A stretch of 43,678 nucleotides of DNA from Sulfurimonas sp. (lineage in GTDB: Bacteria > Campylobacterota > Campylobacteria > Campylobacterales > Sulfurimonadaceae), in the NCBI GenBank assembly GCA_030247515.1, contig JAOTSA010000007.1:1-43678 (forward strand). The letters run 5' to 3'. Numbering within the stretch: the stretch's first letter is position 1; the number at the start of each line of letters is the position of its first letter. The notes under the pieces were generated by a model, which saw only the letters and a list, made by a program, of their open reading frames with translations, had not been told where the DNA came from and ran no database searches. Positions 9,062-25,511 of the stretch are shown here, piece by piece. A program made the position numbers and the translations under genes.

Positions 9062-9144
9062 CTCGAAAAACAAGTTTTTCGTAGCTTTAGGTGGTTGTAG
9101 CTGCTTTAGTCCATGACACTAAAACGGACGAGTTCGTTTTAGTG
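9062..9144 (+). repeat. Intergenic palindromic repeat, copy 1
   Basis: The unit starts with a hairpin CGAAAAAC/GTTTTTCG (9064-9081), continues with GTAGCTTTAG and a degraded TTTAGTCC segment, and ends with a 28-base hairpin at 9117-9144 (arms CACTAAAACG and CGTTTTAGTG, 8-base loop). The same order of parts recurs in reverse at 21346-21428, and the last hairpin plus flank recurs at 23838-23870. It lies directly after clpB and may also terminate it. The GTAG-plus-hairpin layout resembles REP elements mobilised by RAYT transposases, which is an inference. Confidence 0.75.
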
Positions 9145-22122: not shown

Positions 22123-22248
22123 GTTTTCCCCTTTTGAAAAAAGAGATATTCTAGCAAAAAATGAAAAAATTCTCCTTATCTTGATGCAATTAAAGAGTTC
22201 AAAGCATCCCTTGGATAAAATTGCATAATTTATTTTTAGGAAATTTTG

Positions 22249-23784
22249 ATGAAAAGAGCGTTGGTAAGCGTAAGCGATAAGAGCGGTGTGGTTGAGTTTT
22301 GTACTTCTTTGGTAAAAAACGGATTTGAAATCATCTCAACGGGTGGAACATATAAGATACTTGTTGAAAATGGCATCAAAGCTATCGAGATAGATGAGGT
22401 TACAAAATTTCCAGAGTGTTTTGAGGGGCGTGTAAAAACGCTAAATCCATTCGTTCATGGCGGAATTTTGCATCGTCGTGACAAGCAGTCGCACTTAGAT
22501 CAAGCGGCGGAATTGGGCGTTGAAGCGATTGATTTGGTTTGTGTAAATCTCTATCCGTTTAAAGCGACAATCGAGAAAACTGATGATTTTGAAGAAATCA
22601 TAGAAAACATCGACATCGGCGGACCTGCAATGGTTCGTTCTGCTTCTAAAAACTTTGACAGCGTTATGATTGTAACGGATGTAAATGATTATGCAAAAGT
22701 TATAGACGCACTAGAAAATGAGAAAAATACGCTTGAGTTCCGTCGTAATCTTATGATAAAAGCGTTTGAACATACAGCGGCGTACGATGGCATGATAGCA
22801 AACTATATGAACAAGCGTTTTAACGGCGGTTTTGGTGCAAAACAGTTTATAGTAGGAAGCAAAGTGATGGATACCCGTTACGGTGAAAATCCTCATCAAA
22901 AAGGGGCGTTGTACGAATTTGACAAACACTACTCAGAGAACTTTAAAACGCTAAAGGGCGAAGCTAGTTTTAACAACCTAAACGACCTAAGCGGTGCGGT
23001 TAAAATCGCCTCCGCATTTGGAGATGCAAATGCTATATGTATCACAAAGCATGGCAATCCTTGCGGTTTTGCTATCCGTGATAATTTGGTAGATGCTTAT
23101 ATTGAGGCTCTAAAATGCGACCCTGTATCGGCATTTGGCGGTGTTGTTGCGGTTAATGGTGTAGTTACAAAAGAGCTGGCACTTAAGATGAATGAAATCT
23201 TCTTAGAAGTCATCATTGCGGGGCGTTTTACAGAGGAGGCGTTAGAAGTTTTTGAGAGCAAAAAACGCATCAAACTTTTTGAGATGGGTCATGACAAGCT
23301 AGTTCTTGCAAACGATGAGAAGGATTTTAAGCATATCGACGGCGGTTTTGTCTATCAAGATGCCGACAAAGTAAATGACGATGAAGTCAAAAATGCAAAA
23401 CTTATGACGATGAGAGAGGCAAACGAGCAGGAGAAAAAAGATATGGAGATAGCATACAAAGTAGCATCTCTTACAAAATCAAACTGCGTAGTTTATGTCA
23501 AAAACTCTGCAATGGTAGCAGTCGGCATGGGAATGACCAGCCGAGTTGACGCAAGCCAATGTGCGCTTAAAAAAGCTAAAGAGATGGGGCTTGATGTAAC
23601 GGGTGCCGCACTTGCAAGCGAAGCGTTTTTCCCATTCCGTGACAGCATCGACGCTGCCGCTGAGGCTGGCGTAAAAAGCGTCATAGAACCAGGTGGAAGC
23701 ATCCGTGACGACGAGGTAATCGCCGCTGCAAATGAGTACGGCATGAGCCTTTACTTCTCAGAAGTGAGACACTTTTTGCACTAA
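22249..23784 (+). CDS. purH: Bifunctional AICAR transformylase/IMP cyclohydrolase
   Basis: PurH carries out the last two steps of IMP synthesis. The 511 residues have an MGS-like IMP cyclohydrolase domain at the N-terminus ([25 protein letters not shown], ~1-140) and the AICAR transformylase domain (~195-511) with [25 protein letters not shown] and the C-terminal SDAFFPF-like [13 protein letters not shown]. The ATG at 22249 has AGGA 7 bases upstream; a TTG directly before it would add one residue. A small hairpin follows the stop. Confidence 0.96.
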
Positions 23785-23837: not shown

Positions 23838-23870
23838 CTAAAACGGACGAGTTCGTTTTAGTGCGTAATC
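23838..23870 (+). repeat. Intergenic palindromic repeat, copy 3 (partial)
   Basis: The hairpin with arms CTAAAACG and CGTTTTAG and its downstream flank match 9119-9151 almost base for base, including loop GACGAGTT and the following GTGxGTAAT. The upstream parts present in copies 1 and 2 are missing. It lies just upstream of the antitoxin gene, 47 bases before its ATG, and could affect its expression. Confidence 0.75.
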
Positions 23871-23907: not shown

Positions 23908-24180
23908 ATGCAAACGATACATTTGGAAGTAAAAGATAGTTATGTGGCAAATATTATGACGCTTTTACATAGCCTAAAAGATGGCATGATCGATAAGATA
24001 GAGATTCAAAGCGACCCAAATCTCAAAGATGACCCTTACTTTTACGAAAGAAGAGAAGATTTGCACAAGCTGCGAGATGATGTACGAAGCGGGAAAATGC
24101 AGATGTTTACACAAAACGAATATGATGAAGATATGGCTCTTTTTATGAAAAACCTAGAAGTCAAATATGCAAATAGTTAG
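23908..24180 (+). CDS. Probable antitoxin of a type II TA pair
   Basis: The 90-residue acidic protein starts MQTIHLEVKDSYVANIMTLL, an N-terminal strand-helix that resembles antitoxins of RelB/ParD-like pairs, and has a charged C-terminal half likely to wrap its toxin. TTAAGGAG precedes the ATG as a strong ribosome binding site, and TATAAT at 23875-23880 may be its -10 box. Its last codons overlap the original start of the toxin gene (ATG at 24167), the usual coupling for such pairs. With the toxin broken it may be an orphan now. The family name is an inference from size, fold and context. Confidence 0.65.
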   Translation: MQTIHLEVKDSYVANIMTLLHSLKDGMIDKIEIQSDPNLKDDPYFYERREDLHKLRDDVRSGKMQMFTQNEYDEDMALFMKNLEVKYANS

Positions 24181-24563
24181 AACAACTTTTTATAGTAGAC
24201 TTCTTGCATAACCTAAAAATTAGATTCCAAGTCAAGCTTGGAATGACGAGATTTGTGAGTTTTCGTCATCCTGAACTTGATTCAGGATCTAGGTTATGCA
24301 AGAAGTCTAGTAAAAAACTTAAAGAGATTCTTGAGTACATTGCTTATGACAAGCTCAGTGCTGCAAAAAAATTTAACAAAAAACTTGATGAACAGATAGG
24401 CGGCTTACTGGTTTTTCCACACAAATACAGAAAATCAAAATATTTTGAAGCCGAAAATATCAGAGATATGATTTTTAGCGGCTATACCATCATCTATGAA
24501 ATCTTTGAAGATAAAATCGAAATCTTAACCATCTTCAACCAAAATCTCCCTCTTGAAAAATAG
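24167..24563 (+). pseudogene. RelE/ParE-like toxin gene interrupted by a MITE
   Basis: The ancestral gene starts at ATG 24167 inside the antitoxin gene (MQIVRTTFYS) but now reaches TAA at 24209-24211 inside the inserted element after 14 codons. The rest of the toxin resumes after 24311 (KKLKEILEYIAYDKLSAAKK, later DMIFSGYTIIYEIF and ILTIFNQN), a typical RelE/ParE pattern. Removing the insert with one target copy restores an uninterrupted frame of about 93 residues, the normal toxin length. A frame from TTG 24204 reads through the element into the toxin body (119 residues) and might still be expressed by reinitiation, because that TTG lies 3 bases before the stop. I consider the toxin inactive or altered. 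Confidence 0.8.
24197..24308. mobile_element. 112-bp MITE-like palindromic element
   Basis: Perfect 19-base terminal inverted repeats lie at 24197-24215 and 24290-24308 (AGACTTCTTGCATAACCTA and its complement). Flanks are either a 3-base AGT duplication (24194-24196, 24309-24311) or a TA duplication with the ends shifted by one base; the TA version is typical of IS630/Tc1-mariner-type MITEs. Inside are two hairpins, TTCCAAG-TCAA-GCTTGGAA and TCCTGAA-CTTGA-TTCAGGA, arranged as an imperfect inverted repeat of each other, so the whole element can fold into one long cruciform. It encodes no transposase. Confidence 0.85.
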
Positions 24564-24629: not shown

Positions 24630-25511
24630 ATGTTCAAAAGAGTAGGGCTTTTTTTACTTACAAATATCGCCGTTATGGTGGTTATCGGGATAATCGTCAA
24701 TATTTTCGGATTGAACAGATTTTTGCATGCCAATGGGCTTGATTTGGGGATGCTTTTTGTCTATTCGCTTGTGATTGGTTTTAGCGGTTCGCTTATCTCG
24801 CTTTTGATGTCCAAGCAGATGGCAAAGATGTCGGTGGGTGCGAGAGTTATAGCAAATCCTGCAAACTCTGAGGAGTTTTGGCTGGTTGAGACGGTAGCGA
24901 GACTTTCGCAAAAAGCGGGTATCAAGATGCCAGAAGTGGCGATTTTTGATGACATGAGTCCAAATGCTTTTGCAACAGGTGCTTTTAAAAATGATGCTTT
25001 GGTTGCCGTGAGCCGTGGGCTTTTGAGAAGCATGACACAAAAAGAGGTCGAAGCAGTTTTAGGACACGAGATAGGGCATGTCGCCAACGGAGACATGGTA
25101 ACACTCACGCTTTTGCAAGGAGTTGTAAACACTTTTGTGGTCTTTTTTGCCCGTATTATCGGTTATGTGGTCGATAGAGTTATACTCAAAAACAGAGGTG
25201 AGGGTGCGGGCGTGGGTTACATGATAGCAAGCGTGGCAGCGGAGATAGTTTTGGGTGTTTTGGCATCAATGATAGTGATGGCATTTTCAAGATACAGAGA
25301 GTATAGAGCCGATGAGGCAGGAGCAAATTTCTCAAGCACGCAAAACATGATAGCAGCGCTTCAAGCACTGCAACGCTCCAAAGAAGAGCCACACTTGCCA
25401 GAAGCCATCAAAGCGTTTGGTATCAACGGCAAGGGGTTTGCAGCACTCTTTAGTACCCATCCATCACTTGAAGATAGGATAGAAAAACTAAAAAGTTTCC
25501 GCCAGAGTTGA
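24630..25511 (+). CDS. htpX: Membrane zinc metalloprotease HtpX
   Basis: HtpX is an M48 protease of the inner membrane that degrades damaged membrane proteins. The 293 residues have two N-terminal membrane helices (~7-25 and ~40-60), the zinc motif GHEIGHVANGD (~144-154, HEXXH), two further helices (~160-180 and ~190-215) and the third-ligand stretch SRYREYRADEAGA (~223). Length is normal. AGAGGA precedes the ATG. The last codons and stop overlap the HspR operator of the next operon, so htpX sits in a protein quality-control block with cbpA and hspR. Confidence 0.95.
   Translation: MFKRVGLFLLTNIAVMVVIGIIVNIFGLNRFLHANGLDLGMLFVYSLVIGFSGSLISLLMSKQMAKMSVGARVIANPANSEEFWLVETVARLSQKAGIKMPEVAIFDDMSPNAFATGAFKNDALVAVSRGLLRSMTQKEVEAVLGHEIGHVANGDMVTLTLLQGVVNTFVVFFARIIGYVVDRVILKNRGEGAGVGYMIASVAAEIVLGVLASMIVMAFSRYREYRADEAGANFSSTQNMIAALQALQRSKEEPHLPEAIKAFGINGKGFAALFSTHPSLEDRIEKLKSFRQS

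What the first reader, a model, noticed from the sequence alone, without database searches (positions are those of the whole stretch)
24167..24563. Toxin gene split by a MITE whose removal restores the reading frame
The toxin start ATG 24167 lies in the antitoxin end, is cut off by a stop in a 112-bp element with perfect 19-base inverted ends, and the toxin body resumes on the other side. Deleting the insert plus one target copy (AGT or TA model, 115 or 112 bases) joins TTTTTATAGT directly to AAAAAACTTAAAG in frame and gives a ~93-residue RelE/ParE-like protein. The event can be dissected to the base and suggests a recent insertion that left the antitoxin as an orphan.
Basis: partly seen in the sequence, partly recalled or inferred. 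Interest (0 to 1): 0.75.

Follow-up and report, generated by a model that had tools for sequence, protein, structure and literature searches.

The report
Jumping-DNA fragment interrupting a toxin gene
In this Sulfurimonas genome a 112-base non-coding jumping-DNA fragment has landed in the growth-toxin gene of a toxin-antitoxin pair, and a sister species still carries the same gene pair at the same place without the insert; this is a clean, well-documented example of an ordinary process.

Summary
Window 24197-24308 is a 112-bp MITE with perfect 19-bp inverted ends, flanked by a 3-bp AGT target duplication. It is one of about 18-20 near-full copies in this 2.06-Mb Sulfurimonas draft. A sister species (G093, 91-92% DNA identity) has the same order purH / antitoxin / toxin / htpX with an uninterrupted 93-residue RelE/ParE-type toxin. 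Full IS elements of 896-907 bp with matching ends, the same ANT-type 3-bp duplications and an HTH_Tnp_4 + DDE_Tnp_4/DDE_Tnp_1 transposase occur elsewhere in the genus but were not found in this genome, so the MITE is non-autonomous. Two refinements. First, one frame through the MITE is open and runs into the toxin body, so 'orphan antitoxin' is likely but not proved. Second, toxin-broken/antitoxin-intact loci recur in the genus, through other mutations. MITE disruption of a gene is known; this is a well-dissected new instance.

The parts
23908..24180 (+). antitoxin gene, 90 aa, intact
   Evidence: ORF; 98% identical orthologue next to an intact toxin in G093, and paired homologues in about 30 Sulfurimonas loci; no Pfam match even at E 10
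24167..24196 (+). 5' end of the toxin gene (first 10 codons), overlapping the antitoxin end by 14 nt; its frame stops at TAA 24209-24211 in the insert
   Evidence: sequence, translation, homologues start at this residue
24194..24196 (.). left target-site copy AGT
24197..24308 (+). 112-bp MITE: 19-bp perfect terminal inverted repeats around two inner hairpins (GTCATTCC..GGAATCTA type)
24197..24215 (+). left terminal inverted repeat
24290..24308 (-). right terminal inverted repeat
24309..24311 (.). right target-site copy AGT
24312..24563 (+). body of the RelE/ParE-type toxin gene, frame intact to its stop
   Evidence: PF05016 E 1.6e-13; 97.6% identical to the G093 toxin
24243..24563 (+). chimeric ORF: 22 codons from the MITE (ATG 24243) continuous with the toxin body; probably not expressed
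   Evidence: translation, PF05016 E 1e-13

Best explanation
A 112-bp MITE, mobilised in trans by an IS5-superfamily (ISL2-like, ANT-target) transposase, inserted at an AGT in codon 10 of the toxin gene of a chromosomal RelE/ParE-type toxin-antitoxin pair lying between purH and htpX in a Sulfurimonas genome. It duplicated AGT and added 115 bp. The shift and the early TAA end the toxin after 14 codons, while the upstream antitoxin stays intact. Shown: element, ends, duplication, copy number, natural empty site, parent-type IS elsewhere in the genus. Inferred: which transposase moved it, that the toxin is dead, and that the antitoxin now works alone.
For: Empty orthologous site in G093 with an intact 93-aa toxin, difference exactly 115 bp. 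Multi-copy family in G000, copies 83-100% identical. Matching 3-bp duplications AGT, AAA, AAT, ACT, ATT at 9 of the 11 copies whose two ends a script could place with a plausible length, and ATT/AAT by eye at several more. IS elements of 896-907 bp with near-identical ends, flanked by AGT or ATT and coding HTH_Tnp_4 plus DDE_Tnp_4/DDE_Tnp_1, in G127, G091 and G075. Homologous toxins span the insertion point without interruption.
Against: None against insertion. The genome is a 185-contig draft with no detectable transposase of this kind, so the mover is inferred from other species. Precise excision in G093 cannot be formally excluded, but the uninterrupted homologues make the empty state ancestral.
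Confidence: 0.95

Rival explanations
1. The insertion did not abolish the toxin but replaced its first 10 residues: translation starts inside the MITE (ATG 24243, or TTG 24204) and gives a chimeric ParE-like protein that may still bind the antitoxin or keep partial activity.
For: One MITE frame is open from end to end and runs into the toxin body; the ORF still scores as ParE_toxin at 52.1 bits; the toxin body has kept its frame and differs from G093 mostly at synonymous sites (5 synonymous, 2 non-synonymous codons).
Against: No Shine-Dalgarno at a workable distance by eye; the start lies in a very stable RNA fold (-60.5 kcal/mol); the conserved first residues (M-x-I-x-R) are lost; a low mutation count since a recent insertion says nothing about selection. 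The single-sequence model was uninformative (pLDDT 37).
Confidence: 0.07
2. Assembly artefact: a repeated element was misjoined into the toxin gene.
For: Repeat family in a draft of 185 contigs.
Against: Both flanks lie in one contig, are syntenic with one G093 contig, and carry a perfect 3-bp duplication of a triplet that occurs once at the empty site.
Confidence: 0.02
3. The element is a REP-like or RPE-like repeat moved by a RAYT (Y1) transposase rather than by a DDE transposase.
For: The interior consists of two hairpins of a dispersed family that also occurs without the terminal repeats, and in genomes where no terminal repeat was found.
Against: The 19-bp ends and 3-bp duplications match the DDE IS elements; no Y1_Tnp match in this genome; Y1/HUH elements do not make target duplications (general knowledge).
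Confidence: 0.03

Closest known systems
MITEs derived from IS5-superfamily insertion sequences (ISL2-like, ANT target)
   Same: short, no coding capacity for a transposase, perfect terminal repeats shared with an autonomous IS, 3-bp target duplication, multi-copy, mostly intergenic
   Different: the core is not a shortened IS but two dispersed hairpin repeats framed by IS ends; this copy sits in a gene
Rickettsia palindromic elements and intragenic ERIC/RU repeats (PMC10969869, PMC2759123)
   Same: small palindromic repeat inside a gene with an open frame that fuses to the host ORF
   Different: here the fusion is only with the downstream part; the host reading frame from the native start is cut
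RelE/ParE-family type II toxin-antitoxin modules, e.g. toxins annotated on Campylobacter plasmids (about 42% identity)
   Same: antitoxin-toxin order, overlapping genes, toxin matches PF05016
   Different: antitoxin matches no Pfam family; toxin is interrupted
Gene inactivation by MITEs, e.g. the mcy cluster of Anabaena (cited in PMC10969869)
   Same: natural gene disruption by a MITE
   Different: target here is a chromosomal toxin-antitoxin toxin, with a natural empty site in a sister species

Membership tests
MITE | short (<600 bp), terminal inverted repeats, no transposase gene | tested here: met
   112 bp, 19/19-bp ends; five of six frames have stops and the sixth has 37 codons
MITE | multiple dispersed copies | tested here: met
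   about 20 near-full copies in G000, more in sister species
MITE | target-site duplication | tested here: met
   3-bp AGT here; 3-bp duplications at most placed copies; empty site
MITE | ends shared with an autonomous IS | tested here: met
   L256, L257, L258 in other species of the genus; none found in the own genome
IS5 superfamily, ISL2-like group | DDE transposase of the DDE_Tnp_4/DDE_Tnp_1 type in an IS of about 0.9 kb | tested here: met
   PF13359, PF01609 and PF13613 on the ORFs of L256-L258
IS5 superfamily, ISL2-like group | ANT 3-bp duplications | tested here: met
   AGT and ATT around the IS; ANT at nearly all MITE copies, AAA at one. That ANT marks ISL2 is recalled knowledge
IS5 superfamily, ISL2-like group | placement by ISfinder or by a transposase tree | not testable with these tools
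   no ISfinder on hand
Type II toxin-antitoxin, RelE/ParE toxin | toxin of the ParE_toxin family | tested here: met
   PF05016 E 1.6e-13 on the body, E 1.7e-13 on the intact G093 toxin
Type II toxin-antitoxin, RelE/ParE toxin | conserved two-gene operon, antitoxin first, genes overlapping or adjacent | tested here: met
   about 30 paired loci in the genus
Type II toxin-antitoxin, RelE/ParE toxin | toxicity neutralised by the partner | not testable with these tools
   bench assay needed

The most novel reading that the evidence does not exclude
The MITE did not simply kill the toxin but gave it a new start and N-terminus, so that a weakened, antitoxin-binding ParE derivative is made and the pair survives as a regulator rather than as an addiction module.
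Probability: 0.05. Interest if true: 0.5.

Novelty: new member of a known kind. Interest (0 to 1): 0.3.

Why it matters
It is a base-exact natural experiment: the same toxin-antitoxin pair at the same chromosomal site is intact in one species and interrupted in its sister, while another Sulfurimonas record (L116) has no module in that gap. It supports the view that chromosomal modules decay toxin first: three other Sulfurimonas loci have broken toxins beside intact antitoxins. It also shows a MITE whose core is made of independent hairpin repeats framed by IS ends.

Tried and rejected
TA-target, 112-bp model: refuted by the empty site, which differs by 115 bp, and by the 3-bp duplications of other copies. 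A 5-bp TAGTA duplication fits this site alone but not L002. IS630/Tc1 (PF13358) and RAYT (PF01797) movers: no match in the genome. Search for the autonomous IS in the own genome: none. Toxin relatives in viral contigs: none confirmed. AlphaFold of the chimeric ORF without an alignment: pLDDT 37, uninformative. PDB profile search: one weak match, 6x0a 'Plasmid stabilization system', E 0.009. Papers on MITEs in Sulfurimonas or on toxin genes cut by MITEs: nothing specific found in the library.

Full report
What is there. The window is one contig (G000:C50) of a 2.06-Mb draft genome of the genus Sulfurimonas; the genus is inferred from the nearest named records, 82-86% identical in HtpX. Between purH (22246-23784) and htpX (24630-25511) lie an intact 90-aa ORF (23908-24180) and, overlapping it by 14 nt, the start of a second gene (ATG 24167). 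That frame ends after 14 codons at TAA 24209-24211. The stop lies in a 112-bp element at 24197-24308 with perfect 19-bp inverted ends and an AGT on each side. Beyond it the toxin body runs open to 24563 and matches ParE_toxin PF05016 (E 1.6e-13).

Is it an insertion? Yes. In G093, a sister species at 91-92% DNA identity, the same order purH / antitoxin / toxin / htpX is found, the antitoxin is 98% identical, and the toxin is one uninterrupted 93-aa ORF. The alignment leaves exactly 115 extra bases in the window: 112 plus a second AGT. No joining of the window's own halves was needed. About 30 further Sulfurimonas loci have the same pair, and their toxins mostly start at the residue expected from the window's 5' fragment. 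Another Sulfurimonas record (L116) has purH and htpX about 110 bp apart with no module between them, so the pair is itself a variable insert there.

What inserted? A MITE family with about 20 near-full copies in this genome, 83-100% identical; the copy at C125:1894-2006 is identical to this one. The ends carry matching triplets at 9 of the 11 copies a script could place with a plausible length, all ANT except one AAA, with further ATT/AAT cases by eye. By an ORF scan the other 17 copies examined lie mostly in gaps between genes, some touching ORF ends, and this is the only clear case in the middle of a gene; MITEs are usually intergenic (PMC10969869). IS elements of 907, 896 and 906 bp with near-identical ends, flanked by AGT or ATT, occur in G127, G091 and G075; their two overlapping ORFs match HTH_Tnp_4 and DDE_Tnp_4/DDE_Tnp_1. 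No such transposase, and no IS630 or Y1 transposase, was found in G000, with the caution that a 185-contig draft can lose repeated IS copies.

The core of the MITE is not a shortened IS. It is two facing hairpins of a GTCATTCC...GGAATCTA family that also occurs without the terminal repeats, in this genome and in others where no terminal repeat was found. Some copies carry an extra stretch (GTACCACAAGGGTATTTCCTTTGGTCA) within a hairpin. The ends and the mobility are those of a DDE IS; the filling is REP-like.

Consequence. The native toxin frame is cut after 14 codons, so loss of function is the likely result and the antitoxin is probably left alone. Two cautions. One MITE frame is open and joins the toxin body (ATG 24243, 106 aa), still scoring as ParE_toxin, so automatic annotation may list an intact toxin. 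But its start lies in a very stable RNA fold (-60.5 kcal/mol, z -10.3) and the conserved first residues are missing. And the low divergence of the toxin body from G093 (5 synonymous, 2 non-synonymous codons) does not date the event or prove selection.

Context. In three other Sulfurimonas loci the toxin is broken while the antitoxin is intact: a TGA at codon 8 in G018 (L050), a TAG at codon 34 in G077 (L208), and a deletion with frameshift in G072 (L200). Among the listed pairs none had a broken antitoxin with an intact toxin; in G074 (L203) both look broken. These are MAG-quality sequences, partly found with the antitoxin as query, so this is suggestive only.

Verdict. The observation and its reading are right, with the AGT model; the event is an ordinary MITE insertion, unusually well documented by a natural empty site.

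Noticed in passing
window 9119-9142 and 23838-23861: A 24-nt palindrome CTAAAACGGACGAGTTCGTTTTAG, 18 copies in this genome and 5-8 in three sister species; the copy at 23838 is absent from the orthologous gap in G093.
   Followed up: partly
L050, L208, L200: Homologous toxins broken by a stop (G018, G077) or a deletion (G072) next to intact antitoxins: toxin-first decay seems to recur in the genus.
   Followed up: partly
L015, L016, L028, L029: Copies of the inner hairpins carry an extra stretch GTACCACAAGGGTATTTCCTTTGGTCA (or close variants) inside the hairpin, itself roughly self-complementary.
   Followed up: no
G060, G078, G095: Sulfurimonas genomes with about 65-113 first-look candidates for the MITE query, matching mainly its hairpin core, and no match to the 19-bp ends.
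   Followed up: no
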